Below are positions 10,541 through 59,375 of a stretch of DNA of 64,000 nt, piece by piece. Below the pieces are notes generated by a model. It saw nothing but the letters and a program-made list of their open reading frames with translations, was not told the origin of the DNA and ran no database searches. The DNA is from Euptelea pleiosperma (lineage: Eukaryota; Streptophyta; Magnoliopsida; Ranunculales; Eupteleaceae), in the NCBI GenBank assembly GCA_035048495.1, contig CM068552.1:21268154-21332153 (forward strand), given 5' to 3'. Both the position numbers and the translations under genes were made by a program. Every line of letters starts with the position of its first letter. Within the stretch, counting starts at the first letter, position 1.

Positions 10541-10775
10541 TCATTTTTACTCCTAATGACTAAGTGGATATTCAACCCACCTATTGGTGGATAAACACAC
10601 TAAAAATCAGCTTGATTGATGATTTCTAACCATTGGATTTACTACTCAAAAAACATGTTTGAATCTAATCCTAAAAAATACTAAAATCTGTTTAGAGATG
10701 ACCAATCAGGTTAACTTTTTGTTTGTATATCCAACTTGGGGTGGGCTAAATATCCATATGGTTATAGTGGTCTGA
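10541..10775. repeat. Fold-back MITE (CAGCCTGATTGGTGATTT family), copy 1
   Basis: Inverted arms TGGATATTCAACCCACC...TTGGTGGA and TTGGGGTGGGCTAAATATCCA flank AAAATCAGCTTGATTGATGATTTCTAACC and its inverse. It lies 3' of the DMP gene. Confidence 0.7.
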
Positions 10776-10938
10776 GGCCTTCTCTCACCTGGGGCCAAGA
10801 CGACCGCCTTATTGGCCTTATGGTAGAGACGGCCCTGTGTACAGATTTTGATTACGCTAGGCTGATATTGTTGGCTAAACCTTATGTTTTACTGATCTTA
10901 CAAAGAAGAAATACATTTTTTTCCACACTACACTTTCC

Positions 10939-11586
10939 TCAACTCCTAGAGTACAAAACGTCCCTCTTCAGCAAGAAAGGATACCCAATTCCCCTCCTTT
11001 TGGAAGGAAACACCACAAACAAAACGCTTATCACAAACCCAACAACAAGAGGAACAGTGTTTGTCACCTTTCTCGGCATCGACTGGTAATAACACTGGAC
11101 GACATCATTATTCGATGCTGCAAATGTAAGGAATGCTACTAATGAAAGTGAAGCATGGAAAAGATCAGCCCACCTCAGTCTGTAATCCGACGGTACGTTC
11201 GGTCTCTTTCTACCAGCATTAAACGTCCATATCCCCCTCAATGTTGCCAACCCATAATACAACCTCCCCGAGGTCGTGCGAAAGCTGTCCGTGAATGTGA
11301 AGAAGACACAAGAGACTGCTGATATCCCTAAGAAAACACCCATACACCATCGGTTTAGAGTGTTACATTTCCCGTCGTTTGTTAGGATGGGAACGAAGAT
11401 TGAGAAGGCGAGGATCGTAGCAGTCGGTAAGAGAACATTGAGGCGAGCCGTGCCGCTGAGGATCGTGTTGAGAACAAATATGATATAAGATCCATCGGTG
11501 CCATCGTCTATTAAGTCGTCGTCATCATCTATTATGTTGTCATTGTCGTGGCTTTGGATCAGGACTTTATGTGTCATGTCATCCAT
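10939..11586 (-). CDS. DUF679 membrane protein (DMP family)
   Basis: This single-exon gene encodes 215 residues. It shows the DMP pattern: an acidic, Asp-rich N-terminus (residues 10-32), then SGTARLNVLLPTATILAF with the first membrane helix (about 49-68). A second helix (81-98) leads into the FTDSF motif, followed by GRLYYGLAT, a third helix (142-158) and a fourth helix (177-195) ending in FPSKRRGIGYP. DMPs are plant-specific four-helix proteins of the endomembrane system and plasma membrane. Some members (DMP8/9) act in sperm-egg fusion and others in senescence or membrane remodelling. Which subgroup this is cannot be told here. The frame is open upstream to 11703, but the ATG at 11586 gives the usual family length. 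No frameshift or stop is seen, so the gene appears intact. Confidence 0.88.
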   Translation of the reverse strand: MDDMTHKVLIQSHDNDNIIDDDDDLIDDGTDGSYIIFVLNTILSGTARLNVLLPTATILAFSIFVPILTNDGKCNTLNRWCMGVFLGISAVSCVFFTFTDSFRTTSGRLYYGLATLRGIWTFNAGRKRPNVPSDYRLRWADLFHASLSLVAFLTFAASNNDVVQCYYQSMPRKVTNTVPLVVGFVISVLFVVFPSKRRGIGYPFLLKRDVLYSRS

Positions 11587-11840
11587 TATCAGGAAATTTA
11601 TCCGACGACCGACGGGCGAAATGATACAAGTAATGTGAGGACAAGGTGAGGCTATATTTGAGCTTGTAGGCAGGATTATTCTTTGATTAAGTGAGAGGAA
11701 CAAGAAATTCTATTTCTGTAGTCTTTCATTTTTTCCTTTTTCTCAGGTTTCTTTGGTTCCATACGTGCAACTTTTGGCATCTGCTCTTTCGGTTTGTCTT
11801 CTTAATATTTTCAAAAATGCAAGGAATATCACTTTTGTTC

Positions 11841-11848
11841 TTTTTATA
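11841..11848 (-). promoter_or_regulatory. Candidate TATA box of the DMP gene
   Basis: The minus strand reads AATATAAAAAGAAC here, about 255 bp upstream of the chosen ATG. That would leave a leader of roughly 220 nt, plausible for a plant gene. It is judged by sequence and position only. Confidence 0.45.
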
Positions 11849-11849
11849 T

Positions 11850-12377
11850 TCCACATGGTGGAAGCCTATAGGGAGAGAGAGAGAGAGGTGAGGTGGCGAA
11901 ACATGTGGGCCCCTTCGGGTCTGCCACTTCAGCTTCCACATGAAAGAAAACCCAATGGTCAACACTTATTCTCTCCTCTGTCAGTGTCACTTTAGCTGTT
12001 GATATAGCTTACATGCAGGTGGATGGGAGCTAACTGGATGTTTGTAACCATCCGATCAAAGAACTTTTTCTTTTCTTTTTGGATTGCTTACAGTACTTTT
12101 AGAATGATGAATCGGATGGTTATAATCATCTCGTTTGGTTGAATTTCTTACAAAAGAAATTTCATAGGTCAGCACATCAAATGGTTGGTCTGTTCCTATT
12201 CATTTTTCATCTTATTATTTGGTAGTCTTTGGAGCCTTGTTCCATCATCCTCGATGGACTCTACACCCCATAAGGCACACATGGCCTACCAACTCATTCA
12301 TCCAAACCATTCAACCAGTAGCTCTAGATGTTCCTCTGATTGGTCCGGTTTTCTGGCCTATGCACCAACAAGGTGGC
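11850..12377. other. Upstream region of the DMP gene
   Basis: The stretch holds a GA-rich tract (11874-11888) and AT-rich DNA. No gene or clear repeat was recognised. Confidence 0.4.
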
Positions 12378-12385
12378 TCCTCAAT

Positions 12386-13122
12386 TAGTGGTGGCAATTT
12401 GGCCCGCTGCCCAGACCGAAGTTGAGCCCTGCCCCGCCTGGCCCGTGAATAAGCTGGGTCGGGCCTCAGTTCATAAATCAAGCCCGCAGTCCGGCCCGAA
12501 ATAATGTCTCATGGGCTGGGCTCAGGCCGGTCTATGTGCTGGGCCTTCAAGCCCGAAGTTGAGCCCAGGCTCGCCTCCTTTATAAAATCCAACCGTTGGG
12601 TGCCCTTATCATGAATTGGTTTATGAATTAGTTTCAAGCCCATGATAATAAAAAATACTCAAATCCAATAGCTAGAAATCATTGATCATACGATTTTTGG
12701 TGCGGAGGTCCACCAAGGTGTCAACCAACTATTGATGGGTCATTGGGCCAATAATTCATTAATTGGACTAAATGCAGATCGACCAAGGAGTGGACCAAAC
12801 AATCATGGGACAATGGGCCCAAGAGTATACCACGTGGCATTTTTTGAGAGGTGAAGATCAAACTTTATTGCCACCTGGAACTGAGTACGACGCTCCTCTA
12901 CAACCAACATTACATCGACCACCTTTTTTCCTTTTGCTACCTCTTGTGCCACGGCATTCAAGCCCGCAACCTTGCCCGTTGCCCGGCCTGGCCCCGGACC
13001 AAGCCCATCGGCCCGACTATGGACCAGGCCATGGGCTGGGCCTGGGTTTGAATTTTGGAGTGAAGCCCGACCTAAGTAGCCTGCGGGCTTGGTAAGCCCG
13101 GCAAGCTAAATTGCCACCTTTA
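12386..13122. mobile_element. Non-autonomous hAT transposon with 8-bp target duplication
   Basis: The element starts TAGTGGTGGCAATTT and ends AAATTGCCACCTTTA, inverted terminal repeats of the plant hAT type. The 8-bp TCCTCAAT is found on both sides (12378-12385 and 13123-13130), the target duplication length of hAT elements. The interior is rich in GCCCG/GGGCC runs near both ends and contains no transposase. Open frames crossing it have no family resemblance. A partial second left end (AAAGGTGGAAATTTGGCCC) begins right after the target duplication, at about 13132. Confidence 0.9.
12590..12850. repeat. Fold-back MITE copy 2, nested in the hAT element
   Basis: Degenerate left arm (AACCGTTGGGTGCCC, AAGCCCATGATAATAAAAAA) and a clear right arm (TAGAAATCATTGATCA, GGTCCACCAAGG, CCACGTGGCATTTTTTGAG) identify it. 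It sits inside the hAT element. Confidence 0.6.
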
Positions 13123-13189: not shown

Positions 13190-14110
13190 AACTCAGGCAC
13201 AGTCCATGGCCCGGTCCATAGTGATAGTGCCCTTCCCCGAGATAGAGGAGGGGTTCCTATCTGCAACCTGAACCTTATTTTTACCAGAACAAATATTGTA
13301 GGAGGAAAAAATGGAGGGCATATCAGTCATATGATCAAAGGCACCAAAATCAATGATCATAAAGGGACCATTGGGTGAAGTAAACACAAGTAGATGTAGA
13401 GAGACCATCCAATGAAGCTGGTGAAGCTTTGTCAATGTCTATGCTGGAGATGATACTAGGCAGTCTAAAGGATGAAGGCATCATATTGGAAGACTCCTGA
13501 CTAGTAGCATGAGCTACAGAGGTTCCTTATTTAGCACTAGAAGGCTTCATAATTGAGCTTTGCTTGCCACAAGAGAAATGTGTAGGGCGACCATGTAGAC
13601 TCTAGTAGATCTCCCAAGTGTGGTGATGTCGACCACAGTGGTCACAACGAAGCTTGTCACGATCATCAGACTCCCCATCTTTCTTAGATACATGTTTGGT
13701 CTATTTTTGAGTGGCTAAAGCTGACTTCTTAGAAAATAGAAGTCAATAATTCGAGTTCGCTCAACCATCTTCCAAAACTCTGTAGCATCAGTCGTACAAG
13801 ATAGACAATAGGTTTTGTAGTAATCTATACTTATTCCCACTTATTCCGTAGGGTAGCATGGTAAGTTCCCAATGGAAGATTGCCTTGCTTCAGGCACGCA
13901 ATGTCCTATTGAAGTTTGTACATCTTAGCAAAATTCCCAACCTAGGAATACGTATGAGATACAACATCCTAAGTATCCTTGGTTGTCAAAAAATAAGGGC
14001 AGGCCTTTGCTAATGGATGGTTTCATGGAGTGAAACAACCATGACATAACCATTGAGTTTTTTGCTTCCCATTTTCCAAATGTGACATAATCTCTTATGG
14101 TGCAATTATT
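13190..14110 (-). pseudogene. Copia-type gag-protease remnant
   Basis: On the minus strand a CDHCGRHHHTWEIYW zinc-knuckle-like block (about 13,600-13,660) precedes the aspartic-protease region. That region reads FMIIDFGAFDHMTD in place of the usual D-S/T-G-A catalytic motif. This order is that of Ty1/Copia polyproteins. Several stops and a changed catalytic context show that it is dead. It runs toward lower coordinates and ends at the partial hAT end. Confidence 0.75.
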
Positions 14111-14775
14111 TGGCTAATAATGTATCCCACTTTCCAAATGCGGCATCGAGTTTTAACTATTAGAGCCAGTGCATTTTTTATTCCAAGTATGGTGATGGCA
14201 GAACAGGCCAATGATCTGGTGGACCATATAGAAACCAGGCTAGACAACTTAGTACCATTCACATGCATAAGGTTTCCACGTAGGTACAGGCATAGGTTTT
14301 GTAGTAATCTATACTCATTCCCACTTATTCCGTAGGGTAGCATGGTAAGTTCCCAATGGAAGATTGTCTTGCTTCAGGCATGTAATGTCCTATTGAAGTT
14401 TGTACATCTTAGCAAAATTCCCAACCTGGGAATACGTATGAGATACAACATCCTAAGTATCCTTGGTTGTCAAAAAAAAAGGGCAGGCCTTTGCTAATGG
14501 ATGGTTTCATGGAGTGAAACAACCATGACATAACCATTGAGTTTTTTGCTTCCCATTTTCCAAATGTGACATAATCTCTTATGGTGCAATTATTCGGCTA
14601 ATAATGTATCCCACTTTCCAAATGTGGCATCGAGTTTTAACTATCAGAGCCAGTGCATTTTTTATTCCAAGTATGGTGATGGCAAAACAGGCCAATGATC
14701 TGGTGGACCATATAGAAACCAGGCTAGACAACTTAGTACCGTTCACATGCATAAGGTTTCCACGTAGGTACAGGC
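13812..14775. repeat. Tandem duplication, two copies of 482 bp
   Basis: The sequence 13812-14293 is repeated at 14294-14775 with only a few base differences. Anchors AGGTTTTGTAGTAATC and GGTTTCCACGTAGGTACAG recur at the same spacing. The duplicated block comes from the Copia remnant's gag-side sequence. Confidence 0.92.
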
Positions 14776-15585
14776 AATCTCGAGGCACCTTGAGACATTC
14801 CTAGCCACCACGACTTCACCAACCCTTATCACGAACGTGCGAAGGGATTCGATGCAGTTCAAAGAAGGGAGAGTTCTGCGATTTCAACAGGTGCACCCGG
14901 ACACAGAAGAGGTTCAATCACCTTCCACGATTTCTAAGGTGTCACTTGCGAAATCAAGTGTCTGTGTCAAAGCCCAAATTAGCTCCAACAAAGCCAAAGG
15001 CTGCACCGAAACCAAAAATCGTTAACAAGACGAAGTCCACGTCCCAAAAGAAGGCAAAGTCGACGTTAAAGGCTAAGACTGTAAAGGCTTTGAGCGACGA
15101 AGACTTCACTGAGGAAAAGGTGATGACTAAGGTTGGAAAATGCGCCAACACAAAGCCAAGCGCAATGACTTTCCCACTAGCAAGTAGACAACGGGAGGAG
15201 ATTTCGCCAGCAAGCAGACAACCTCATGCTCACTTACCTCCTGATTCATATTACTAGTAACACTACAAGATTCAACATCGATATCATGGGCGAATGCAAT
15301 TTGGGATCTTGTGGCATCGACCTTGAGGACAATGTTACTTTCAAGGGTGCGGGGATGTTGCCACACCCTTGCCGTCGACGTCCGAAGAGCAACACCAGTC
15401 ATCTCCGTAGTCGCCGTGCTCAAGTTGATTGTGGGTCATAGTGCGGTTCCCTTTAGGAATTACTTGGAGAGGAGAAGCGATCGGAGGAAGGTGATTAATT
15501 CTCTGTCCTTTATTTCTGATGGATCTGTCGGAGTTTGAGTTCCCTACCCTCATCGCTGTGGGAGATAACCATCGTTTGCATCAAT
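14776..15585 (+). other. Unidentified region with a lysine/proline-rich open frame
   Basis: The frame 14946-15257 reads KPKLAPTKPKAAPKPK followed by further Lys/Ala/Thr-rich sequence. This resembles the tail of plant linker histone H1, but no globular domain is seen upstream. The rest has short overlapping open frames without recognisable families. It may be a piece of transposon or of an H1 pseudogene. Confidence 0.25.
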
Positions 15586-34959: not shown

Positions 34960-34984
34960 CATGAGTAAAACTTTGCTGACCGAT

Positions 34985-35290
34985 TGTTAGCGAAGACACT
35001 GACCGCCCATAATATGAGCCACATGGCACATTCTTAGAGGACACTGACCGTATTGGTGATTTATAAGCGTTATATTGGTTTCATTTTAATGGATTGATTT
35101 TAACCTTGGGAATTTGAGCATTATTGACCATTATTTGGGTACAAAGATTCAAATGTTTGAAATCACCAATCAGGCTGATTTTTTACTTGTAGGTCCAACT
35201 AGTGATTGGTCAAACATCCATACGGTCGTAGTCGTCTAAGAGCGTGCCACATGGCTCATATTCTGGGTGGTCAGCGAATTCGCTGACTGC
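34985..35290. repeat. Fold-back MITE copy 3, at the FAB1 promoter
   Basis: The left arm GCGAAGACACTGACC...AATATGAGCCACATGGCAC is matched by an inverted right arm (GTGCCACATGGCTCATATT...GGTCAGCGAATTCGC). The interior has the family core CACCAATCAGGCTGATTTTT. Confidence 0.8.
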
Positions 35291-35381
35291 CTTATATGCA
35301 TGGAGTCATCATGTACCAATTTACGCGGTTAATACATTCCTAAAGGCCCGTGTTTGCTGTTCCCGGGGGACTTCATCCCCC

Positions 35382-35670
35382 TCCAAAAATGCCACGTGGA
35401 ACATTCTTTCAGGCCCACAGATACATACATGTTCGGTTCACCTCTTGGTGGGCCTTTACACCAAAAATCATTTTAATTGGTATTTTTAGCCGTTGGATTT
35501 GAACATTTAATAGGGTGATTTATAGCCGTTGGATTTTGAGCTTTTTACTGCCAACATCTAACTGCCATAATCACCAATCAAGCTGATTTTTGGATTATGG
35601 ATCCACCAAGAATTTCGACAAACATCCATAAGGTTAGTGGGACCGAAAATAGTTTTTATTTGGCATTTTG
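35382..35670. repeat. Fold-back MITE copy 4
   Basis: It begins AAAAATGCCACGTGG and ends TTTGGCATTTT. The interior has CTCTTGGTGGGCC, AGCCGTTGGATTT and CACCAATCAAGCTGATTTTT in inverted arrangement. Confidence 0.85.
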
Positions 35671-36370
35671 AGAAGGGGGAGACTTGAAAACTTGAAGGAC
35701 TCACGACAGCAATATTTTCTCCATTTAATACTATATACGTATTTATATACGTAAATGGGAAGTAATATCGTATATGCACCCGTATAGAAGGACAGTGCAC
35801 CGACGGCCCTGAAAAGTGGGAACAGAACAATCCGAAGGCCCCAGAATCTAAGGAGGAGTATTTGTCGTATTAGGAAGGGGGCATTTACATTTACGAGGTT
35901 TTATTTATATAATAAAAAAGTATCATTTTTTTTTCTTTTTCAAGTAACGGTGATTTTCTTTCGTTTACTTGGTAAGAGAAAATATGAAAATATAGGGGTC
36001 CCACCAATAAAACAATCCAGATTGATTCATAGGTGGACACGACAACAACACATGGTTATGGTGTATAGTGTAAATGATTGATTTAAAGTTTGACTATTAT
36101 AGGTTGGAAAACCATGTACAACAGTACAAGCATGATACTAGGACACGTGGAGAATAAGGGTCACTAGATACTGTTTGCTGGGACCCACTAGGAAATGTCA
36201 TAGTTTAGGAGCTAACACAATCAAATGATCACAACTTATATAATTATTTTATAGAACACTCACTAGATTTTTCTAGGCTGTGATCGAATGGCTTGAGATC
36301 ATAGATTCATATTGACTTTTGATCCAGCTGACTTCTGTAGGGTGATCCATTGAATAAGGTAAGTTTTAAA
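35671..36370. other. No recognisable gene
   Basis: AT-rich intergenic DNA with no long open frame and no clear repeat boundary. Confidence 0.4.
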
Positions 36371-36598: not shown

Positions 36599-36734
36599 AT
36601 AGGATACCCACAAGTGGGTCGGACTCAAACTAAACTGTCGGTTCGGAGTCTAGACCCCGAACAAAACTGGGTCTAGGTATTCATTTTTGGCAGGCCCGGA
36701 TTTTCGATTATGGGTCGTTATGTAACAAGGCAAC

Positions 36735-37090
36735 CTGAGATCTTTTCAAATGAGGAAGCGCATTTGTGTTACTCACCGCTATCATCTAGGCCCACTGACC
36801 GCATGGATATTAAGCCCACCCCTTAGTAGATACTCATACCAAAAAGCAGCTTGTTTGATGATTTCTAGCCATTGGTTTTAGTACTCAAAGCTATGGTTGA
36901 ATTGAACGACTATAAAAACTCCTTTAAAAGTACTAAAATCTAATGGTTAAATATTACCAATCAGGCTGATTTATGGTGTGTATATCCACCAAGGGGTGGG
37001 ATAAACATCCATGCGGTCAGTGGGCCCAGATGACAGCGGTGAGTAACAAATATCGTGCTTCCGCATTTGAAAAAGTCCCAAAATGTATTA
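36735..37090. repeat. Fold-back MITE copy 5, long inverted arms
   Basis: TTTTCAAATGAGGAAGCGC...GTTACTCACCGCT...GGCCCACTGACCGCATGGAT is repeated inverted at the right side (ATCCATGCGGTCAGTGGGCC...AGCGGTGAGTAAC...GCATTTGAAAAAG). The arms exceed 100 bp. Confidence 0.88.
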
Positions 37091-37184
37091 TAGGTATACA
37101 TGGTTACATCTTTTTCCTCGAGTATTAAGTAGATCGTACCTATCGAATTGTCCCATCCCACCAATCTCCAACCTGTATTTACAG

Positions 37185-37475
37185 CCTTAATCACCGCTGC
37201 CCCCTGAGTTCACTGACCGCGTGGATGTTTAGCGCACCCCATGGGAGTATAAAAACTAAAAATCATCCTGATTGGTAATTTCTAACCATTAGATTTTAGC
37301 ACTTTTTAAGGCATGATTATAGACGTTGGATTCAACCATTTTTTGGTATTAAATCCAACGGCTAGAATTCGCCAAACAATCTGAATTTTGGTATGAATAT
37401 CCACGAATGTGTGGGCTAAACATCCATGCAATCAGTGAGCGCAGAGGACACAGGGTGAGTAACAAAAGATCTAGC
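37185..37475. repeat. Fold-back MITE copy 6
   Basis: CACCGCTGCCCCCTGAG, CACTGACCGCGTGGATGTTT and the inverse AAACATCCATGCAATCAGTG with GGGTGAGTAAC mark both arms. It lies less than 100 bp from copy 5. Confidence 0.8.
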
Positions 37476-37544
37476 TCGTCAAAATTCCAAGTGTCTAGAT
37501 TAAGGCTGCAGATGATCTAATGACTCATTTTTCTTTCAGCTCGG

Positions 37545-37733: not shown

Positions 37734-37839
37734 TCTCTTATGTGGTCCAATCCGACAACATCATGCTGGATTGAGGTATTGGGCCTTATGGATCGGGTCT
37801 GGGTCTAGAAATTGGAATAAATCTTTGATGACTTCCCGG

Positions 37840-38125
37840 ATGTCAGCACACTTTTACAAACTAATGACCGTACGGAATTTTTTCAATCCCTAGGTGTACC
37901 TACATACCAAAAATCAACCCGATTAGTGATTTTTAACCTTTGAATCTGTGTACCTAAAATAATGCTTGATTGCCAACGGCTAAAAATAAACCCCCATGAA
38001 TAAGACTCCAATCCAACTGTTAGAAATCACTAATCAGGATGTTTTTTGTTAAATTGTAGGTGCACCTAGGGATGGCCCAAACATCCATACGGTCAGTGGT
38101 CTCTAAAAGCGTGCCACGTGGTCCC
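37840..38125. repeat. Fold-back MITE copy 7
   Basis: The arms are AATGACCGTACGGAATTT / AACATCCATACGGTCAGTGG, the core is AAAAATCAACCCGATTAGTG, and it ends AGCGTGCCACGTGGTCC. Confidence 0.8.
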
Positions 38126-39395
38126 ATCAAAGATTTACTTTAGGAATTGTGATCTAATAAGTTACGTAAACAATATTATATCAATGACGTGTACGCTGAG
38201 AAAAACTTTTCTCATTTGTTTATTTGTTATAGTTTTTGTTTTCTCTACATTAAACGGACATCAGCTCAATAGTGGTTCACTCAGAGCCATTCGATATCCC
38301 TGGGATTAGGAATAGATCCCATCCATTGAATTCTCTAGTCTGGATCAGTTCTGAATCGAGTGGCCCTACTATTTGATCGGTCAAGGATTGACCTTGACCC
38401 AATTGAACACAACCTATCGACCACCCTAGGCGAAAATATATCGCTACGGCTAGCGTGGAGACGAAAGATTGACGCTTTATAGCACACCATGTTGAAAGGT
38501 GATTGACAAATGTTTCAATAACGATAGTTATTACCCATTGATAATAACATTACAACGGTCTTGGGTCATACCTTGTCACACGCTATACAATATATAGTAA
38601 TGGCCCGTGCCCACGGCACTCTCCGACAAAAGCGTTTGCAACGGACTGGGGGCGTTACCATTTTCCCATTATAAAAGATTGTAACGCACAAGGGCAACAA
38701 CAACAGAAATAACATAAAATAATAGAAAATAGCGGCATTAAAATGCAAAATTCAAATTTTGAATTTCAAACTTTCAATATGTTGGTCAAATGAGTGGGAG
38801 TGACCGAATAAGTGAGGGGGATTGAGTGGCTGAAATCTAACCGTCCACAATAGATTGATGGATTTGATCTCAACCACTCTTTATCTTATGAAGCAGGGAT
38901 AAGATAAGAGATAAAGACAACTTCCATGTTTTGTAATATAGATGGTAAATAACTCCCCTAATTAATAAAATATTGGCCATTGTTGATTATTATTATCAAC
39001 GTCATTACCATTGTGATATAGTTATTTCATGACCGCTATAAGGTTTAACGTTATTTAATTATTTTAGAAATAAAATAAATAAAAACATTGTAATTTATCA
39101 ATAAAATATAGTAAAAAAAATCACCTATATATCATTGCAACTATTGTAATGGCGAATGATGGGTCCAACATCGTTATCCTCATTTATTTTTTGTATTTTA
39201 AACCTCGTGAATGACGACTTGCCTTTTCTTTCATCTTTTTTTTTTCATTTTTTTTAAAGCATAAATTTTTACAATGGCTATTATATATAATTGTTTATAA
39301 CGACATTTGTTGACAAAAACTTTTGCACTTGGATTAATTAGAGTGCAAAATTAAAAGGACAAATTTCAATGTTTTCATTGGTTTGAGAAGTGCGG
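38126..39395. other. Intergenic region with AACGG-type repeats
   Basis: Between about 38,515 and 38,775 there is a unit with TAACGATAGTTATTACC, TTACAACGGTC and GATTGTAACGC. A further unit occurs at 38,930-39,180. No gene is seen. Confidence 0.4.
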
Positions 39396-39605: not shown

Positions 39606-42534
39606 TGTGAAACCCCGAAAAATCTCAATCGTTGGATTGATTCCCTTAGATTCAATAAACATCGAGATTCGAGCCTTTGGTAACCGAGAGCGGTAAATTC
39701 AACAAAATTTTATAACTTTTAATTAAAATAAAGATTAATTCAATTATAGAGTCTATAGTGTTAAAATAAAGAAATAATTTGAATTATAAATTGATGATAT
39801 TACTCGGGATTTGAATTGATGAATGGACCCTAGAGATAAGCTAAACAATCATACGGTTAGTGGTCTCAATTATAGGATGCCACTTCTTCTCGACGATGTT
39901 CAAAAATCACACGCTCAAGAACAAACTACGAATAAGACCTTAACCTAATAGATTTTTGGTATGTAGGTCCACCTAGGGATAGGTCATATGTGCCAGAATA
40001 GTAAGTGGACCATAAAGGTCGGGCCATCCTGATAAGTATAAATAGCAAATAAATAATAAAAGTAACAAAGTGAATATCTTAAAATTTTAATTATACTAAT
40101 ATAGGTCTAATCATCCAGGGATACATATAAACGGCGATAGGAATGTCGTGCTCATGTTAACACAACTTGTAAAACAAAGAAAATAAGAAAAATGTATAAA
40201 ATGATAATTTATAGAAATAGGATAATTTTCAAATGGTGGGGATGATTAGTGAAATTTCCACCCTTAACCATAACACAATCACTGAAAAGCAAGTAATTAA
40301 GAATATAGAATAAAAAATAAAAAAAAAATAGATAATAGTAAAAGCAAGTAGTGCACTCGTGTGAGGTTAAATTCAAAATTTCAATAATCCTAGAATAATA
40401 CCAGGACATTCACATGAAAAAAAAAATACAAAAGCTTTAGTGTCAACTTTGACTAAACCGGTCGAGTCAACTTACTTTAGTTTTTTTTCAAAAAGCAACC
40501 TCCGTACCTAATTATTTTAACTTAAAATGTAAAGTTTATTAGTTAGGTTAAATTTGACTTATTTCGACCATCTCACTCAGTCAACCCGTTACAATTGTTT
40601 TACCGATTTTGAACCAACATGACTTTTAGTTTTAAATAAATTTTGAGTTTTTCTAACCTTTTTTGTTTTGTCGAATCATCAAGTTTTGTTTATATTGATG
40701 GTTTATCAAGCTTCATTATTCGAACGATTTATTGAATTTTATTTTGATTATGATCTATTAGTGGATTTGATGGACTGGTGCTAGTTTTTATATCGTTGGT
40801 TTTTTTTTTTAACTATCTAAATAATAAGTTTTATCAGAAGATGAGTGGGTTTTCACTCAATTTTGTTCATTGGGTTTTTCAAGAAAATGGAAAAGGATGG
40901 GTGTTACAGATTTTGGGGATTGATTTGATGTGCGTGATCAGTAGTACGTTTGAAGGTATGGGATGCTTAGGCTACCCCGGATTTATAGATTTGGATCTTA
41001 TTGGGTGCCCAAGTGGACCCGGGGGTGCCATTATAGACCCAGTTGTATTGGTTGGTTTCAGATGAGGTTTGGACATATGGTTTCGAGATTGGGGCCCCTA
41101 CTAGCATACACACATGTCAGGGTACTAAGTGATCAAATAAATTAATGAAATGGAAAGAGAGGGTTTTTCCAAAAAAAAATAAAGAGATTTTAAATCAGAA
41201 ATAAAAGCTTTAGCAAGCCTAGGATTATATATATTATACGTATTAGGGTGAATTAGAAGGGTCAGTAGAGTCTTAGATAGAGGCGGTACCTATGTGTTCT
41301 TTTGATAGGATGGGGTATCACTAAAACTATGGGATATTAGCAACTATCCTAGAGTCTCGGTTCTTCTGAGGAACTCAGCATGATGCATTATTTACGGATG
41401 GTTAGCTGAGGGTTACACTACATGCCTGATAGGCACTTAGACGCGGGGCATGATGTAACTCTGCCCGGACTTTCTTTGGATCCATAGAAATTCTGTAGTC
41501 GTCGAACGTTTAGCCGACGTGATAATGTAGGCCAACTGCGACCTGAGCCGGAAACGTGGGGTGCAGCGCAGGACCAGCGCCAGATGAGTTCGATGGGTGT
41601 CAACGGTAGTTCCCATGCCGAAAATCAGGACAAGTAAAGACCGTGCAGCCCGCGTTAAGGTGCTAACGATGGTGTCCCACATCGGTGAATTTTGGGATAA
41701 GCCTCGACCGGGGCAAGTATACCGGTCGTAGCCTAAGGTGAAATCTCTTTAAATTCTGCATCGTCAAAACTATTATCTATACGTTATTGTGGGTTAAATG
41801 TTGGCAGATTTGAGTTTTGAGTTATATGATTTTGACGTTGCTTATCCGATTCTATTCTTAGTACATTATCATTGTTTAAATGCAAAATTATGTATCCGTT
41901 GTTTTTTTTATATACAGTAAATGTATGTCAGTGGACTTTGCATGTTACTGTCATACGATTTTTTTTTTTCATGTTTTATTGGCGGTTTTCTCTAGAGATG
42001 AAATCATGAGTAGTTTTAAACCACTCCCCACTACTGGGCTTTTTCTCGAAAGCTCACCCACCCCCAGATCTTTTGCAGAGAATCGATGATAGTTGGAGGA
42101 CCAAGAGGATGATTGGTGATATTCCAGTTGAGGAGACCATTGGTTATTATCAGAGAGAAACAATGTTGTTAGGATTTGTCTCCATCATGGTATAATTTAT
42201 TTTCTGCTACGATTTGACTTTGTTATTTTCAGAATATCTCATATATTTAAATAAAACCAAATCATTATATATGTGTACTATCACACTTTATCCCTTGTAT
42301 ATTGGATAGCATGTTTAGAAATTAATGAAATTACTTAAATTTTCCCAGTCAAATGATTCGATAGCTCATCTAATTGAAGTTATATAGGATATCACACTTG
42401 AGACCTCAACCCCACAGCTTACCTTCATCTGAAGTTATCATTTTAGCTTCGGGACTTAATGAATTTATAGATAGGAGGACTGTTAGGTAGACCGTTCACA
42501 CCTCGAGATCTGTGTTGGATTTCGGGGCGTGACA
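39606..42534. mobile_element. 2.9-kb solo LTR (Ty3/Gypsy, Tekay/Del-like)
   Basis: It starts TGTGAAACCCCGAAA and ends TTTCGGGGCGTGACA, inverted termini of the kind seen in Tekay/Del chromovirus LTRs. The 5-bp GTCCA is duplicated on both sides (39601-39605 and 42535-42539). No primer-binding site, polypurine tract or polyprotein is present, and LINE sequence resumes directly outside. It contains a degenerate fold-back MITE near 39,830-40,020. Confidence 0.88.
39825..40020. repeat. Degenerate fold-back MITE copy 8 in the solo LTR
   Basis: It has AAACAATCATACGGTTAGTGG, GGATGCCACTT and TTTTTGGTATGTAGGTCCACC fragments of the family. Confidence 0.45.
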
Positions 42535-49710: not shown

Positions 49711-51540
49711 CAACTTCATACGATTACACATGAATTCATGCTTGAAGAATATGTCAATATCAGAGATTTAAGAAAAGAAACATAGATCAAAAGAAAATAT
49801 GTAAAAAAGAATCATAAATATAAAAAGAAGTGATACCTCTATTTCTAAGCAAAGCACACAAGCTTCCTCTTCAATGGAACTTTTTTTTTCTTTCTTTCTT
49901 TTCTTTTCTCCTTTTTCTCTTGATTTACTCTCAAAGATGCTAAAAATTCTCTCATACTATGGGTGTGTCAAAGTGGGGTTTAGGGCTTGAAAGAATATTT
50001 TATAAGTCCCTTGCCAATGATTTCTAAAGGGGAGGATCTCCAACGACTTGGTTTAATTAGCTAGGGAGAGAGAATCTCCCACTCTCCTTACTAATTTTAA
50101 TTGGTTTCTAGAGTTTGCTCTTTATCAAAGTCAATACTTTCTAAAAATAACTCCTACTGGGTTTTTTTTCCAACACTAATTAATCTACTTAGATATAATT
50201 AATTCTAATTGATCTCTTAAGAGTTGCTAATTTTGAAAATTTTCTCCTTTCTATTAAGCGCCCAACGCTTTTCTTAATGTGGGGTCTACCATCCCAATTC
50301 AAATCTTCTAGAGTTATCCATGCTTTCTGTGTTCACACTATCACCCACCTCACTCAATGATTTTGCCTAAATTAATTATTGAAATTAATTTTAGATTATT
50401 ATACACCATATATAAAACATATTTATGCAATAAATTTTCAGATTATAGTACACAATATATGAAATATAATTGTGCAATTATGGGTCCTTACATAAAGCCA
50501 AATGGGTATCCGCCCACACAAGCTACACACATGATTAAACCATCCATGTACATAATTTGGACCCATTAAATTAACACATGCATACATAAGCCCACAACAA
50601 TATAAATACATGCATACATAAGACCCGATTTTCTTGTGTAAAATTATCAAACTACCTCTAACTAAGTTTTTAAATTTACAACTCATGAAATTACCAAAAT
50701 ACCCTCCAATGTTATATTAAAATACCCTTCTAAGAAAGTTTTGAATGTTACAAAGTTACTCTTGGAATGGTATAGGATTGTATTAGTAACAATTTTAACT
50801 ATCTAACCATTTTGGAGAACCCTTTCCTAGAGGGGTCAAATTGAATTCTTCAGAGAATCTCATCTTATGGGAAAATTACTATTTTGAGAATATTTAATTA
50901 AATTATGAAATAATTTGAAGGCTCCAAAAATTATTTCTATATATGCTTCTTATAAAATGAGTTTCTAAACAATGTGTAGGTTTCCCAAAAATGCATTATT
51001 TGCACAAGTTTCTTTTGTAAAATTCATTTAAGAGAAGCAGTTGCCATCCTCCACGTGTGGAGACTTGTTCACAACGTCAACAGTAGAGGTGGCTCATCCC
51101 ATGATTATTGGTTTCTAATATGAGAGGAAAACGAGATGAAATTAGAGTGTTTAAGTTTGATTAGAAAATGCGGATTTCTACTCCTAGCACACTGCTCAAA
51201 AGAGGAAATCTACCTGTGTGGGTTTGACCCCACGACCTCTCGAAAGAGGAGGATATACACCAACCATTTGAGCTACCATGCTGGGTGTGGAAGGAATTAC
51301 AGTCGATGGGCCATATTCTTACTATAAAAATTATAAGATAAAAGAGGTCTACAATTGATGAACTACATTTGAGTAGTCTTTCCTAAGGTGTACATCTGAT
51401 TTAGAGTTTGTTCAAGGTGTAGACCTCAAGGTCGACCCATATTGAACTTTGTCAAAAAACTCTGCAATTCTTTTTGTCTGAGTCGGATGGTATTTCCTGA
51501 TCTTGTCTCGATATTCTAGATGGAGAAAATGTCCGTTGTC
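49711..51540. other. Probable LTR-derived AT-rich DNA with a tRNA-like module
   Basis: Composition and style resemble the 45.1-47.4 kb insertion. At 51,213-51,288 the minus strand has TAGCTCAAATGG and GGGTCAAACCC, A- and B-box-like, around a short stem CCTCTTTCGAGAGG. No coding sequence is recognised. Confidence 0.4.
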
Positions 51541-51547
51541 CCCTCTC

Positions 51548-51834
51548 AAAATGCCATCTGGAGCTCACCTTTAGGCCCTACTGACCTTATGGATGTTTGT
51601 TCCACCTCTTGGTGGACTTACATACCGAATATCATGATTTCTAACAGTTGAATTTTAGCATCCAAAAAAAGAACTCAAATCTAACGGCCAAAAATACCGT
51701 TATTAAAATGCAAAATCCAACAGCTATTAACCGTCAATTATACTAATTTTTATGTGTGTAGATCCATCAAGAGGTGGACCAAATTTTCACAAGGAATGTG
51801 GGCCCTAAAGAGTACATACTTCACATGGCATTTT
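51548..51834. repeat. Fold-back MITE copy 9
   Basis: It begins AAAATGCCATCTGG and ends CACATGGCATTTT. The arms contain AGGCCCTACTGACC, CTCTTGGTGGA and their inverses. Confidence 0.85.
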
Positions 51835-51903: not shown

Positions 51904-53338
51904 TGTGGGTGCCGTATTTTCCAGCAAATCAAATATTGACGCGTGTCACTGGTTTAGCACGTGCGGTCTTAAAAAGATGACACCTATTGTTAGACAGCAC
52001 GCGAGAGCAAATGCGCCGGAGACATCATCAGGAGCCATAAATTGTCCCATCGTGTCCATTAATTGGAAACGCACGTGTCAAGATGGAATGATCGACATAT
52101 GGAAGCAATGCTAACAGAACGCATTAACGTTGTAGCCTTTAATATGTCGGGAAGCATTCAAATCTTGCCCGACATATTTATTCTTGGTTTACTTGACGAG
52201 ATCTATCTCAATCTCATCCCGGCAAGGTCACATGACTGGCTGGATGCATTTATCCCGACAAAGTCAGCAGACTTACTTGACGGGATCTATTTCAATCTCA
52301 TCCCGACAAGGTCAAATGACTGGCTGGATGCATTTATCCCGACAAGGTCAGTAGACTTACTTGACGGGATCTATTTCAATCTCATCCCGGCAAGGTCACA
52401 TGACTAGCTGGATGCATTTATCCCGATAAAGTCAGCAGACTTACTTGACGGGATCTATTTCAATCTCATCCCGACAAGGTCACATGACTGGCTGATGCAT
52501 TTATCCCGACAAGGTCAGCAGACTTACTTAACGGGATCTATTTCAATCTCATCCTGGCAAGGTCACATGACTTGGCTGGATGCATTTATCCCGACAAGGT
52601 CAGTAGACTTACTTGACGGGATCTATCTCAATCTCATCCCAGCAAGGTCACATGACTGGCTGGATGCATATATTTCGACAAGGTCAGCAGACTTATTTGA
52701 CGGGATCTATTACAATCTCATCCCGGCAATGTCATATGGGGTCAATAGACTTACGTGACAGGATCTCCTTACGAACGAGGTAAGTATTCTGAACATCATC
52801 AGTTTCTTAACCTATGAATATTAGCCACATGGCAGCTAGTTGAATTATTACAATTTCGACATCCCCTTATCCGAATACCTGACACGAAGGATGCCACCTC
52901 AGTGTCACTTCAATTATTTCAGGTATAACCGAATCAAGGAAGTCAAAATATAACCATAAGATTCTGTTTTATAACAGAATCCATCCGAGTCATCGTTGAC
53001 TGATAATGACTAGACACGTGGAAGGTGAGTCACGCCAGTTCTAAGGGTATAAATATGAGACCCTCGGAACTGAGGAAAGGATCTTGCTCTCTAGATCCAG
53101 ATAGCCTAAATTCTAAAACATTTTACTACTTTTGTGAAACCTGTTACATTTCCTAAGCTGACTTGAGCGTCGGAGCCTTGTCAACAGGTACAACCATATC
53201 TCATCTGGAGATCATCATATCCTTCGCAGAGGAGAAAGCAGTTTCATTCTGGAGCATCGGAGTCGTTCGATCATCACCAAAATCCGAATCGTCTGACCTC
53301 GAAGATTGTGTGGGTTAGATCAGATATTTTCCCCCACA
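51904..53338 (+). mobile_element. 1.4-kb solo LTR with 5-bp target duplication
   Basis: It starts TGTGGGTGCC and ends TTTTCCCCCACA, with inverted TGTGGG/CCCACA termini. GGGTA is duplicated at 51899-51903 and 53339-53343. A TATA box (GTATAAATATGAGACC) at about 53,048 sets the orientation as plus. A six-to-seven-copy 84-bp repeat occupies the upstream half. No primer-binding site or coding region follows. Confidence 0.9.
52180..52760 (+). repeat. 84-bp tandem repeat in the solo LTR
   Basis: GACTGGCTGGATGCATTTAT recurs at 52234, 52318, 52402, 52486, about 52568 and 52654. The unit is 84 bp, i.e. 28 codons, so one plus frame stays open over several units (LLDGIYFNLIPARSHDWLDA). Indels of one or two bases occur in two units. 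Confidence 0.93.
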
Positions 53339-53851: not shown

Positions 53852-54193
53852 GGGCTGGGATATTCTTACTAATGGACGTGGGGCCCACATGTGGTTGTGT
53901 TAAGGGATGATTTTTGGTGAGGGTGATCTCCTTACCACGGAGATCGTCCTCACCAAAAATCAGTAATTTTTAAAACTTCTAACCCTACCAAATACAGACC
54001 TAAATTTAACGGTGAAAATGGATGGTCCAAAATTTTTCAATTTGCAATCTACTTTTCACAAGGTTACTAATGTTGGAATGGGCTGATTTTTTGTATGGTT
54101 GACATCCACATTGAGAAGAATATTATCACCAAAAATCATCCCTTAACAAATCCGCATGTGGGCCCCACGTCCATTAGTAAGAATATCCCAGCC
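53852..54193. mobile_element. MITE with about 60-bp inverted ends, in a (TA)n tract
   Basis: GGCTGGGATATTCTTACTAA...GACGTGGGGCCCACATG is repeated inverted at the right end. TA microsatellite flanks both sides, so the target duplication cannot be told from the repeat. The interior is shared with the small MITE at 23.8 kb, and Mutator-like origin is likely. Confidence 0.82.
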
Positions 54194-55008: not shown

Positions 55009-56179
55009 AGAAAATGATGTTCAGTTCTCATGTATAAGAAAACCTCGTTTTTTTTTTTTTTTTGGGGCCAACTTGGCGTCACTGCTAAATTGAAAGTGAC
55101 AAAACAAAATACTTAAAAGTTCTATGAAGCGATACAAACAAACCAACCAGTCGGCCACCCCTTCAATGGACCTAGCTATGGCTGGAAAGTCGTCCAAAGT
55201 TTCAGATATTATATTGGTGGGCCCTTGTTTATCAAACAAAATGGTGTACCATCATGTTCGATGGGCTATGGGCCGCAACATAAAAGTCATATTTGATTAG
55301 TTAATTCTCAACTTATTATTAAGTAGCATACAACTACGTACAATATGCAAAAAAAGAGAAGGCAATGCAGTTGATTGGTTGTTCGTGGGGAGCGCACGGG
55401 TTGGCCGGCTCTATAGTCGTCTGAGTCCAGCTTACTTTGGTTGCCACCTACCAGCCCGTATTCTAGACCGGGACATGTTTTTGCAGCAATATGAAATGGG
55501 TCAGGCCCAAGCCAAACTTTTAACAGATAGTTTTGGTTTCGGATGTGAAACTTATAATCTTTCTGAATGTTAGGTTTGGGCCTAGTTCCCTATATTCTAA
55601 ACATGGGCCATAGTTGGCCTGGGCCTAGCCCATGTTACTCCAAGAATCATACATAGGAAACCTTTTCTATATGGAAAAAATTTAAAAAGTAACGATCGTA
55701 TATGTGGCGTGCGATCATTGGCGCATGATGGCCGCTTCAAAAAAAATTCTCCGCTATATGGGGTCTAGTGCCACAGAACACACCTTTGGGTCCATGGAGC
55801 TTAGGAATGTTTGGCCGCTCTTAATGTACCCATGCCACAAAAATCAGCTCGATTGGTGAAACTGGGCCATTGGATTCAGGTAATCTTTTTCCGTGGGCCT
55901 ATGCTTGAAAGCCACGGTCTGCGTGGGCCGGTCGTGATGAAAGGTTCAAATCAGAACTTCGAATCATCGCTGATCTTATCTCTGCTCTACAATTTAAGGG
56001 CTGTTTGAAAACGACATTGAAAAGATCACTTTGATAGCCAAGTTAGTGCCGTACACTGTATTGAAGGTGATTTGTGGGATGGGCGCACTTTACAGAGCCC
56101 AATCTGCACTCAAAACCTGGCGGAAACTGAAATAGAATCAACTGGACTTTCTGGTACATCCATAACTTACATTGAAACA
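55009..56179. other. Intergenic DNA with a partial fold-back MITE
   Basis: A T-run is at 55,048-55,064. From about 55,740 to 55,890 there are AGTGCCACAGAACACACCTTTGG-like, AGGAATGTTTGGCC and AAAAATCAGCTCGATTGGTGA sequences, the left half of the fold-back MITE family (copy 10). No gene is recognised. Confidence 0.45.
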
Positions 56180-56470: not shown

Positions 56471-57183
56471 ATCTGAAGCACGACTTAAAAGACCTTTTTA
56501 GAATGGTAGATATAAATATCTCACCAATTTGGTTTTTGCAATTTATCAGTGGGTCCCTCCACTTGGTGTTGGTTCTTATATATAGCAGCATTTTGATGTC
56601 ATGACTCATGACAGCCTTGATAGCATAAACTTATAAGACGTAATGCTCTCCAACTCATCTTCCTTAGGTCCAGACTCCAAACCATTGGATGGTCCTTGAG
56701 ATTCACATCACACAAATCCCGATGATCATAATACGATACTGATATAGTGATATGCCCCTACTATATTTAATATTTTCATACCATGCTCTAGTTTATAATA
56801 TGGAATATCTAAATCTAATTCAAAAAAGTTGATGGTCCTCGAGATTTACATCACACAAATCACGAAAACAATTTAATGGTTTAGACCTAAAGACACCAAA
56901 ACTAAAGTATTATCGTCAAGACGATACTATCAAGTAAATAAGACAAAAAATATAAGACAAATATATATATATATATATGCGGTATCCGGTACCAATATCG
57001 ATATTGTATTTGCGACAATACAAGTATGCCGAACATGTTTAGAGATCCGGGTATCATAGAATTATAAAATCTGAGAAGAGGAAAGGTTGTATTAATTAGC
57101 AGAACGTGGGCCATGGGTAATGACCCGATTATTATTATTATTACGAAAAATTTTTAAAAAAAATTATAAAAACGAATACGCAT
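56471..57183. other. No recognisable gene
   Basis: AT-rich DNA with a (TA)n tract at about 56,961-56,978. Confidence 0.4.
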
Positions 57184-57354
57184 AGCCATTTGAATCGGCG
57201 TCAACCTTTTTGAAATTTAATCCCCAAAATACCCTTGTAGAATCCATTTCGATTGGCGTCAGATTACATCTGGCGCCAATTGAAATAGAGTCAGATCATG
57301 TCTGGCACCATTTCAATTGGCGCCAGATTAGATCTGTCGCCAATTCAAATGGCT
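57184..57354. repeat. Palindromic ATTGGCGCCAGAT cluster
   Basis: The block is bounded by AGCCATTTGAATCGGCG and its inverse CGCCAATTCAAATGGCT. About five GGCG(C/T)CAGAT units in alternating orientation lie between. Confidence 0.8.
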
Positions 57355-57751
57355 ACTAAACTTGTTGCACTCTCTCCTTTTTTTATATGAATAGGCCCAT
57401 TTTGGCTCATCACACATCTCTTTTACATATATCTCAATCTCTCTCTTTGATCTATACTTTCCAACATACTTACATCTTTGAAATGGCAGCAAAGTAAGCA
57501 AATATGGAGGTCAAATAGACGTGGATACGTCCCTTTCCGCATCGAGAAAGAAAACATGATATCAAACTCAGTGCCCCACTTTATTTTTATACTTTGAAAA
57601 ATTGCCAATTTGTTTATCAAATTCAACGCCCCTTTCCACTCTCGTCGTGGAATATGATTAAGATGCTATTAGGATTCTTTTTATCCAGAAATGATAGCAA
57701 GCAACGAGTTGCACAAATGCAACCCACCCCTTTAATTCAAAATTTTTTTTT
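57355..57751. other. No recognisable gene
   Basis: Short open frames on both strands without family resemblance. Confidence 0.4.
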
Positions 57752-58058
57752 TTCTTGCCATGTGGCACACTCTTTCAGGCCTTCTGACCCATGAATGTTT
57801 GGGCCCACGCCTTGGTTAATCTACACATCGGTGTGATTGGTGATGATTTCTTGATCTTGGATTTTAGTTCTTTTTCATCATGGGCTTCATCGATTGGCGT
57901 ATGTGTTGGTTCCAAGCCCATGATGAAAAAGTGCTCTCAAATCCAACTGCTAAAAAAAAACTAAATCACTCTTGACTTTTTTGTGTAGGTCCACCAAGAT
58001 GTGGGTCAAATATTCATGGGGTCAGTGGTCTTAAAAGAGTGCTCCACGTGATATTTTT
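57752..58058. repeat. Fold-back MITE copy 11
   Basis: It begins TTGCCATGTGGCACACTCTTT and ends AAGAGTGCTCCACGTGATATT. AGCCCATGATGAAAAAG-type arms surround the loop. Confidence 0.82.
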
Positions 58059-59095
58059 GAGGAATTTTCGTTTCAAACTTTCAGCATAGAAATTTATATA
58101 GTAGATTTTTCTGTTTGAGGGTGCCGTCTTGTGTACGAAACGCGTTGAACCAGTGTTTTCCAATGTATACTATTTATAATGAATGGGCCAAACATTGGGT
58201 CCAAGCCCATGATGAAAAAATAATGCCTTTGGTTGATTGCAAGGAACTAGTGTTCAATGGTTTCCTTGTCTCACTTGCAAATGGTGCAGATAGGATCATT
58301 AGGTAGACTTCTGTTGTGGATCATTACTATCCTTAGTTTGAATTGACCCTACGCAGACTTAACTCGTTTAAGTCGCTCTATTTTTATTAAGTTTTAGATG
58401 AATATTTTAAATCCGATCTTGTTTTCTCTTACCAATTCCATTGTAGACGAACAGACACGTTAGATTATGTAATCTATGGTAATTAGTAGACTTAGGTGGT
58501 GTTTGGTAAATTAAGTTATCGGATCTAAAAGCTTAAAGTGCTTAAGGTCTGATAGGTTAATGACTTCTGTCTGAATTACTTAAAATTAAGTCAAGGGCAT
58601 TGTGGGTATTTTAAAATATTTATTAGGATATTTTGTAAGTTTTTAATAGAGAAAGCTTTGAGAAAAGGGCAGTGTTGGTATTAAAAGAGAATCTGAGAAT
58701 CGTTTTTAAAGATTCTTTCACTTACTGTAATAAGTGAAGGGAGGGTCACTTTTCACTTTTCACTTAATTTCATTAAGTTTGGTGTGAAGTGCTACTTAGG
58801 GCAGGTGAGAATGATGCGTCCCCACCACAGGTGGATACTCAAGCTGCACCTACATAGAATGACGGTGGACTGTCCCAATGGATCTGCAGATTGCGCGCAC
58901 ACAAGGTGCCCTGACCAAGGTGTCATCGATGAGAGTGAATCGACAACCAACTTTGAAACTATGTAGTGACACATGAAAATAAACGAAGAATTGGTTGAAC
59001 CAAGAGTCTTCACTCTCCATATAGCTATGACGGTCGCTACACTCCTAGAATTGGTCTCCATTAGTCTAGCAGAACCAAGGGAGTCACTTGTACAA
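58059..59095. other. Intergenic DNA with a possible hAT-type MITE remnant
   Basis: GGTGGTGTTTGGTAAATTAAG at 58,495 and a weak inverse near 58,770 (CATTAAGTTTGGTGTG) suggest an old MITE of the TGTTTGGTA type. The rest is unremarkable. Confidence 0.35.
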
Positions 59096-59099
59096 GTCG

Positions 59100-59375
59100 A
59101 TAGCCGCCCCAAGAATATCTTCGGTGGATCTGCAAACTAAAAATCAGGCTGATTAGTGATTTACAACTTTTTGATCTTTGCACCCAAATAACGCTCAATA
59201 ATGCTCAAATTCTTACGGTTAAAATCAATCCATGAAAATAACCTCAATCCAATGCTTAGAAATCACGGATCAAGTTTATTTTTTGGTTTGTAGGTCCACC
59301 AAGTGATTGGCCAACCATCCATATGGTCAGTGACCACTAAGAATGTGCCATGTGGCTTGTATTGTTGGCTGTGAT
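59100..59375. repeat. Fold-back MITE copy 12
   Basis: The core AAAAATCAGGCTGATTAGTG, GTAGGTCCACCAAGTGATTGG, ACCATCCATATGGTCAGTG and end AATGTGCCATGTGGC define it. The left arm is eroded. Confidence 0.75.

What the first reader, a model, noticed from the sequence alone, without database searches (positions are those of the whole stretch)
10541..59375. High-copy fold-back MITE family with G-box-like ends
About twelve copies share AAATCAGCCTGATTGGTGATTT cores, CCAACGGCTAGAAATC arms, GGTCCACCAAGGGGTGGGCC and CCATACGGTCAGTGG blocks and ends of the AAAATGCCACGTGG type. CACGTG is the core of bZIP/bHLH G-boxes; it is kept in at least four copies (12.83, 35.39, 38.11, 58.04 kb). One copy per ~5 kb suggests tens of thousands genome-wide and a possible spread of regulatory sites.
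Basis: partly seen in the sequence, partly recalled or inferred. Interest (0 to 1): 0.75.

Follow-up and report, generated by a model that had tools for sequence, protein, structure and literature searches.

The report
Mutator-type mini-transposons carrying G-boxes
A very abundant family of short, hairpin-shaped jumping-DNA remnants in a flowering plant carries the common plant switch sequence CACGTG at one fixed place and appears to have scattered it widely, although nobody has yet tested whether those copies switch genes.

Summary
The repeat family is real. The window holds 12 copies (two are fragments), covering 5.4% of it. They are fold-back MITEs, and target-site duplications (TSDs) place them in the Mutator (MULE) superfamily: the signal peaks at 9 bp in the e-type and at 9-10 bp in the c-type (0 of 1000 permutations each). 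One interior is shared by three subfamilies whose outer ends do not match.

In 20 x 10 kb of the 613-Mb host genome the family covers 6.3% (bootstrap 3.4-9.5%), roughly 120,000 copies (67,000-182,000). One subterminal 22-mer alone matches 16,470 times (<=2 mismatches); the reversed control matches 0.

CACGTG is not at the ends but roughly 20-60 bp inside, at one aligned position: all 22 boxes in aligned arms share one model column. Elements hold 19 of 54 CACGTG in the sample (rotation null 5.0). The box decays much like other CpGs of the element, mostly to CATGTG/CACATG, and is not clearly better conserved. So G-box spread is shown, regulation is not.

No autonomous MULE with matching ends was found, but few were examined. 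TE libraries and binding data were out of reach. Known kind of system, unusual scale.

The parts
10529..10792 (+). Element A: fold-back copy, both arms, closest to the e-type model; outer ends not recognised, no CACGTG
   Evidence: arm model hits, subfamily models (etype 122 bits)
12646..12862 (-). Element B: two arms in the same orientation (tandem arms, no left arm found); CACGTG at 12831-12836
34963..35291 (+). Element c: c-type copy, left end GAGTAAAACTT, part of the left arm and the right-end motif lost; TSD by eye TTATATACAT / TTATATGCAT (34953-34962 / 35292-35301, 9 of 10). Boxes decayed to CACATG (left arm) and CATGTG (right arm), read outside to inside
35344..35721 (+). Element d: d-type copy (ends ..GCCCGTGTTTGCTGT / GACAGCAATATTTTCTC); CACGTG at 35393-35398; no clear TSD
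36709..37120 (+). Element e: e-type copy (ends GGGTCGTTATGTAACAAGG / GGTTACATCTTTTTCC), no G-box; sits inside a larger repeated unit
37187..37467 (-). Element f: second e-type copy in the same larger unit; the outermost part of the e-type model is not matched
37815..38140 (-). Element g: c-type relative, ends GAATAAATCTT / AAGATTTACTT, TSD by eye TAGAAATTG / TAGGAATTG (37806-37814 / 38141-38149, 8 of 9); CACGTG at 38115-38120, 20 bp from the end
39829..39987 (-). Element k: fragment, two short arm pieces
51523..51834 (+). Element h: d-type relative, left end GAGAAAATGTCCGTTGTCC; box decayed to CATCTG (left) and CATGTG (right)
55767..55886 (+). Fragment: a single arm
57756..58062 (+). Element i: d-type relative; CACGTG at 58045-58050 in the right arm, CATGTG in the left
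59075..59389 (-). Element j: c-type copy with a truncated left arm; its one box decayed (CATGTG on the + strand)

Best explanation
A non-autonomous group of Mutator-superfamily MITEs, about 380-410 bp when complete. Each is a near-complete hairpin of two ~150-bp arms around a short centre. They were moved in trans by MULE transposase (inferred), left 9-bp (9-10 bp) target-site duplications (shown for the c- and e-types, seen in single copies of the d-type), and multiplied in old bursts to roughly 120,000 copies (estimated from a sample). The G-box core CACGTG belonged to the ancestral subterminal sequence of the c- and d-type elements. It was copied with every insertion and now decays mainly by C-to-T change at its CpG (shown by the CATGTG/CACATG excess). 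The simplest reading is that the box is a passenger, or a site used by the element itself. Each intact copy is nevertheless a candidate bZIP/bHLH binding site (inferred, untested).
For: TSD, e-type: flank matching peaks sharply at 9 bp (0.618 vs 0.393 for shuffled pairs, z 5.6, 0 of 1000 permutations; 16 pairs with both ends recognised out of 21 sequences; exact 9-bp repeats in L093, L095, L100). TSD, c-type: peaks at 9 and 10 bp (z 5.0 and 5.4, 0 of 1000; 31 end pairs). d-type: both end motifs recognised in 6 of 21 sequences, one exact 9-bp repeat there (L049), and one offset by one base in L051 seen by eye; no permutation test. In the window 2 of 12 elements, c and g, show TSDs with one mismatch (chance of >=8 of 9 about 0.0002 per comparison). 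Ends begin with G. Hairpins. Copy number: (16,470 of one 22-mer, reversed control 0). Box in one homologous column in 22 of 22 CACGTG found inside aligned arms. Of 62 arms read through the box: 20 CACGTG, 12 CATGTG, 5 CACATG, 2 CATATG, 23 other. 1,851 sites with exact flanks; in the first 100 listed, all on contig C1, 57 CACGTG, 15 CATGTG, 17 CACATG, 1 CATATG, 10 other (counted by hand).
Against: No MULE with the same ends was found. In the c-type the signal at 10 bp is as strong as at 9, weaker signals also appear at 5-7 bp (z 3.0-3.8), and 21 of 31 pairs match at 4 or fewer of 9 positions, as one expects of old copies but not proof. The 31 pairs are not all independent (L020 and L083 give two each). 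Window copy d has no clear TSD. Copy number rests on 200 kb at fixed round-number positions on contigs C1-C13; 9 of 20 stretches held no element, so the interval is wide.
Confidence: 0.87

Rival explanations
1. The G-box is under selection as a host regulatory site: copies near genes that bind bZIP/bHLH factors are kept.
For: 19 of 54 CACGTG in the sample lie in elements (rotation null mean 5.0, 0 of 5000 reach it). In d-type copies the left box CpG is intact in 12 of 19, above the five other well-covered d-type CpGs at 0.25-0.45. The four fixed letters of the box (CA..TG) average 0.87 identity against 0.77 for non-CpG columns. Box B (12831) lies about 1.2 kb upstream of the start of the DUF679 reading frame.
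Against: In the sample the box CpG is intact in 43% (n 72) against 47% for another CpG of the arm (n 74) and 20% for a third (n 85). The whole box ranks 32 of 125 windows for conservation. In c-type copies its two CpGs (0.74 and 0.62) lie within the range of the other CpGs (0.35-0.75).
Confidence: 0.12
2. The box is a working part of the element: a site for transposase or for a host factor that drives transcription or mobility of the MULE, hence kept in the master copies.
For: Same aligned place in the c- and d-type subfamilies, whose ends otherwise differ. PMC3310237 (abstract read) says Mutator TIRs hold transposase-binding sites and promoters.
Against: The e-type consensus has no box there, yet the e-type is also abundant (5,927 first-look candidates with an e query; the shared interior makes such counts overlap between types). 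The d-type right arm has CATGTG already in its consensus.
Confidence: 0.25
3. hAT-type MITE (8-bp TSD) rather than Mutator.
For: Two single copies parse as exact 8-bp repeats when offsets are allowed (L021, L023).
Against: Pooled flank matching at 8 bp is much weaker than at 9 (c-type z 2.3 vs 5.0; e-type z 2.7 vs 5.6).
Confidence: 0.05

Closest known systems
Plant Mutator-type (MULE) MITEs
   Same: Short, non-autonomous, long inverted repeats, 9-10 bp TSD. PMC12550479 (passages and section 3.2 read) gives Mutator as 41.5% of MITEs in 207 plant genomes.
   Different: Scale: this one related group covers about 6.3% of the sample (bootstrap 3.4-9.5), whereas that survey reports 6.04% for all MITEs in rice and nearly 5% in Amborella. 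Methods differ, so the comparison is rough.
MITEs that spread transcription-factor sites: E2F in Brassicaceae (Henaff 2014, seen only through passages of review PMC12595863) and LHY/RVE in carrot (PMC13102513, abstract read)
   Same: A short binding motif inside a MITE is multiplied through the genome.
   Different: Here the motif is the G-box core, and I have no binding or expression data.
MULEs with multiple long TIRs (PMC3310237; abstract and section 3.1 read)
   Same: Extra inverted-repeat arms in one element; window copy B has two arms in the same orientation.
   Different: That paper's internal and external TIRs are alike; here outer ends differ between subfamilies around one shared interior. 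Tomato had about 28,000 MULE copies in all, fewer than estimated here for this group.
Tm1 Mutator/foldback elements of root-knot nematodes (PMC3169594; search listing only)
   Same: Foldback structure in the Mutator superfamily.
   Different: Animal host; sequence not compared.

Membership tests
Mutator-superfamily MITE | 9-10 bp target-site duplication | tested here: met
   c-type, e-type, window copies c and g; d-type only in single copies
Mutator-superfamily MITE | Long terminal inverted repeats, element < 1 kb | tested here: met
   complete copies about 380-410 bp
Mutator-superfamily MITE | Autonomous MULE with the same ends in the genome | tested here: inconclusive
   PF10551: 673 first-look candidates, 150 scored, all 150 over the cut-off. 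The flanks of only one copy were read on both sides (2.5 kb each), plus 1 kb behind a second; no matching inverted ends seen, but the limits of that element are unknown.
hAT MITE | 8-bp TSD | tested here: not met
Tourist / Stowaway MITE | 3-bp TAA/TWA or 2-bp TA duplication (recalled) | tested here: not met
   duplications are 9-10 bp; lengths 2-3 were not in the profile
Named family in Repbase / P-MITE / plant TE libraries | Sequence match to a library entry | not testable with these tools
   libraries not held; full-text string searches for the motifs showed no plant repeat paper among the titles listed (2 of 2 and 40 of 220 papers listed)
Functional G-box (bZIP/bHLH target) | Factor binding and effect on expression | not testable with these tools
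   only the sequence CACGTG was tested

The most novel reading that the evidence does not exclude
One MITE group, moved by MULEs with at least three different end sequences around a common fold-back interior, has supplied about a third of all G-box cores in this genome. It would have reshaped where bZIP/bHLH light- and stress-response factors bind, either as a sponge or as new regulatory sites beside genes.
Probability: 0.25. Interest if true: 0.75.

Novelty: new member of a known kind. Interest (0 to 1): 0.5.

Why it matters
The published precedents I saw for motif spread by MITEs (E2F, LHY/RVE) involve other motifs. If intact copies bind G-box factors, this plant offers, by extrapolating 19 boxes per 200 kb, something like 58,000 CACGTG sites delivered by one datable family, with decayed sister copies (CATGTG/CACATG) as natural controls. 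That would test how transposons rewire, or dilute, a regulatory network. Even if the boxes are inert, one interior with three different sets of ends is a clear case for studying how MITEs change transposase partners.

Tried and rejected
Considered and rejected: hAT, Tourist and Stowaway (TSD length); chance or base composition as the source of CACGTG; strong purifying selection on the box (a mild hint remains in the d-type).

Autonomous partner. One repeated MULE with an 854-aa open frame (five places) was looked at. Upstream of one copy there is an arm-like piece pointing inward (L109 1554-1612, E 6e-6) that lies outside a GGGTAATTC word which I took, without a TSD, for the MULE's start. Downstream lie broken arms pointing mostly the other way (L110 567-1626; one short piece at 1371-1408 points forward), probably after the end of the frame (not translated). 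Those out to L110 1315 travel with the MULE: L111, behind a second copy, is 95.9% identical over 1,001 aligned bases. The orientation, left-arm-like in front and mostly right-arm-like behind, is what true ends would show, so a partner or its relative is not excluded. But a comparison of the two flanks found no inverted repeat beyond one 18-base match at E 0.22. I read it as a MULE carrying MITE debris.

Led nowhere: paper searches for motif strings, for foldback MITEs (no paper), for G-box MITEs (20 of 31 and 2 of 2 papers listed, none opened) and for MITE content of early eudicots (10 of 14 listed, none opened); viral contigs pattern scan, 0 matches; Rfam scan of the window at gathering cut-offs, 0 matches. 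The species was not identified. The DUF679 protein is 71-81% identical to proteins of Protea, Macleaya, Tetracentron, Magnolia and Persea, among the best of 217 hits (120 listed), so an early-diverging eudicot or magnoliid is likely but not shown. Buxus (14 chromosome scaffolds, 764 Mb; PMC8810787, passages read) was considered; its size does not fit this 613-Mb assembly.

A genome-wide control count for a second CpG (GGCCAAACATCCATANNGTCAG) was tried repeatedly and never answered; another control pattern did not complete. The CpG comparison therefore rests on the sample and on 80 fetched copies chosen for similarity, so biased. Two exact matches in the listing (C1:5284729, C1:26462680) are missing from the listing of exact matches, so the pattern counts may be slightly low.
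Full report
OBSERVATION. Aligning the halves of the copies, outside to centre (18 halves from 10 elements), shows one homologous arm: GCCACGTGGCACACTCTT..GGCCCACTGACCGTATGGATGTTTGGCCCACC.CTTGGTGGACCTACA.ACC.AAAAATCAGCCTGATTGGTGATTTCTAGCCGTTGGATTT. An arm profile finds 23 arms in the window; with subfamily profiles they form 10 intervals, which I read as 12 elements, two of them fragments, covering 5.4% of the window.

HOST. G000 is a 613,332,137-base assembly of 247 contigs; the window lies at C13:21268154-21332153. Genes in the window include a DUF679 membrane protein and a reading frame with a PIP5K kinase domain, and there are reverse transcriptase and endonuclease pieces (that these belong to a LINE is my inference). 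It is a flowering plant; the species was not identified.

STRUCTURE AND SUPERFAMILY. Copies fetched from the genome show three subfamilies. c-type: ends GAGTAAAACTT...AAGTTTTACTC. d-type: ends GAGCCCGTGTTTGCTGTCCC...GGGACAGCAAATATTTTCTC. e-type: ends GGGTCGTGATGTAACAAGG...CCTTGTTACATCTTTTTCC. The three profiles hit the same interior, but across types only from about model positions 30-95 inward. For example, window copy e matches e-type positions 4-404, c-type only 65-305 and d-type only 58-303. The interior is therefore shared and the outer ends are not. TSDs: e-type peak at 9 bp, c-type at 9-10 bp, each 0 of 1000 permutations. The c-type test pooled 31 end pairs from the fetched loci and the sample; its profile also has weaker rises at 5-7 bp, and 21 of 31 pairs match at 4 or fewer of 9. 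The 16 e-type pairs (of 21 sequences; in five an end was not recognised) include the window copy and four loci (L089-L092) that share its flanks and so are not independent insertions; those five match at 0-3 of 9, and 9 of the other 11 match at 7 or more of 9. The d-type was not tested by permutation: both ends were recognised in 6 of 21 sequences. Window copies g (8 of 9) and c (9 of 10) carry TSDs found by eye; the other ten window elements show none that I could establish. Ends beginning with G plus 9-bp TSDs are what I recall of Mutator elements. Folded as RNA, e reaches -199 kcal/mol against -93 for shuffles (z -20.7) and d z -5.2.

ABUNDANCE. The 22-mer GCCACGTGGCTCATATTGTGGG with <=2 mismatches occurs 8,299 + 8,171 times; the reversed control occurs 0 times. 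In 20 stretches of 10 kb at fixed round-number positions on contigs C1-C13 (C14 and the smaller contigs not sampled) the arm profile found 81 arms (0 in the reversed sequence), 80 in the run combined with the window. The elements cover 6.3% (bootstrap 3.4-9.5%), which extrapolates to about 123,000 copies (67,000-182,000), counting two arms per copy. 9 of 20 stretches held none, so the family is clustered. For scale: section 3.2 of PMC12550479 gives 6.04% of the genome for all MITEs in rice and nearly 5% in Amborella.

AGE. 47 copies or pieces of at least 100 aligned bases from the sample and window have a median distance to their subfamily consensus of 0.17 (Kimura, CpG left out; e 0.146, c 0.167, d 0.223). 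The closest fetched pairs are 0.15 (c), 0.05 (e) and 0.02 (d), and those of e and d share flanks, so they look like duplications of larger units rather than new insertions. These are old bursts with little sign of recent movement.

THE G-BOX. In the 264 kb of sample plus window, 23 of 65 CACGTG lie in elements (sample alone 19 of 54; rotation null mean 5.0, maximum 15 in 5,000; bootstrap share 17-51%). The 22 that fall inside aligned arms all sit in one model column. Of 64 palindromic hexamers CACGTG is the most enriched in elements (8.4-fold; CCTAGG follows at 7.6), so it is not alone: it is one of several words fixed by common descent. Of 62 arms read through the box, 20 have CACGTG; the commonest alternatives are CATGTG (12) and CACATG (5), the products expected from loss of a methylated CpG. 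Genome-wide, 1,851 sites have exact flanks around the two middle bases; among the first 100 listed, all on C1, 57 are CACGTG, 33 are CpG-decay forms and 10 are other changes.

IS THE BOX KEPT? In the sample its CpG is intact in 43% (n 72), against 47% (n 74) and 20% (n 85) at two other CpGs of the arm; a fourth at the rim is intact in 8 of 10. The four other letters of the box average 0.87 identity against 0.77 for non-CpG columns, yet the whole box ranks only 32 of 125 six-column windows. In 40 c-type copies its two CpGs are intact in 28 of 38 and 25 of 40, against 0.35-0.75 elsewhere; in 20 d-type copies the left box is intact in 12 of 19, above five other well-covered d-type CpGs (0.25-0.45); these copies were picked for similarity, so are biased. 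On balance there is no convincing special conservation, with a mild hint in the d-type. The e-type consensus has no box at the homologous place.

AUTONOMOUS PARTNER. The genome holds many MULE transposases (673 first-look candidates; 150 scored, all above the cut-off, many in long open frames). Flanks of one copy of an 854-aa group were read. They contain MITE arm fragments, part of which also occur behind a second copy on another chromosome (95.9% over 1,001 aligned bases), so this MULE has carried MITE-like arms along. The front piece and most of the rear pieces point the way true ends would, but the two flanks share no inverted repeat beyond an 18-base match at E 0.22 and the element's limits are unknown. 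The partner remains unknown.

MECHANISM. Shown: homologous fold-back arms, TSDs, copy number in the sample, one fixed box position, CpG decay. Inferred: mobilisation in trans by MULE transposase; change of ends by recombination or new partners; potential factor binding. Regulation of nearby genes is speculation until tested.

VERDICT. A very abundant member of a known kind (Mutator-type MITE), with a real multiplication of the G-box core. The concept of MITEs spreading factor sites is already in print (PMC12595863, passages read; PMC13102513, abstract read). Whether this family is already named could not be checked, so 'new' means only not found in the searches named here.

Noticed in passing
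about 36500-37480 (limits unknown) and L089-L092: Elements e and f sit together inside a larger repeated unit: four other loci (94, 94, 92 and 90% identical to e) share flanks on both sides. The limits of that unit were not found.
   Followed up: partly
L110:551-1626 and L111: Behind a repeated 854-aa MULE frame lies a mosaic of broken c- and d-type arms plus other hairpins; the part out to L110 1315 travels with the MULE (95.9% between two chromosomes).
   Followed up: partly
6447-9630: Tandem array of a 179-bp unit, 17.8 copies, 87% matches.
   Followed up: no
2121-2367 and 9979-10258: Other fold-backs built of GCGGCGGTCA/TGACCGCCGCTA words, a different hairpin family that resembles CACTA-type MITEs (recalled, not tested).
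   Followed up: no
53853-54193: Inverted repeat with 132-nt arms, 77% complementary, not hit by this family's models.
   Followed up: no
52189-52738: 84-bp tandem repeat, 6.5 copies, 91% matches, overlapping two long open frames.
   Followed up: no
13808-14776: Tandem duplication of 484 bp, 97% alike.
   Followed up: no
L029-L048: The family is patchy: 9 of 20 ten-kb stretches have none while others reach 20%. Possibly gene-rich against retrotransposon-rich DNA; not tested.
   Followed up: no
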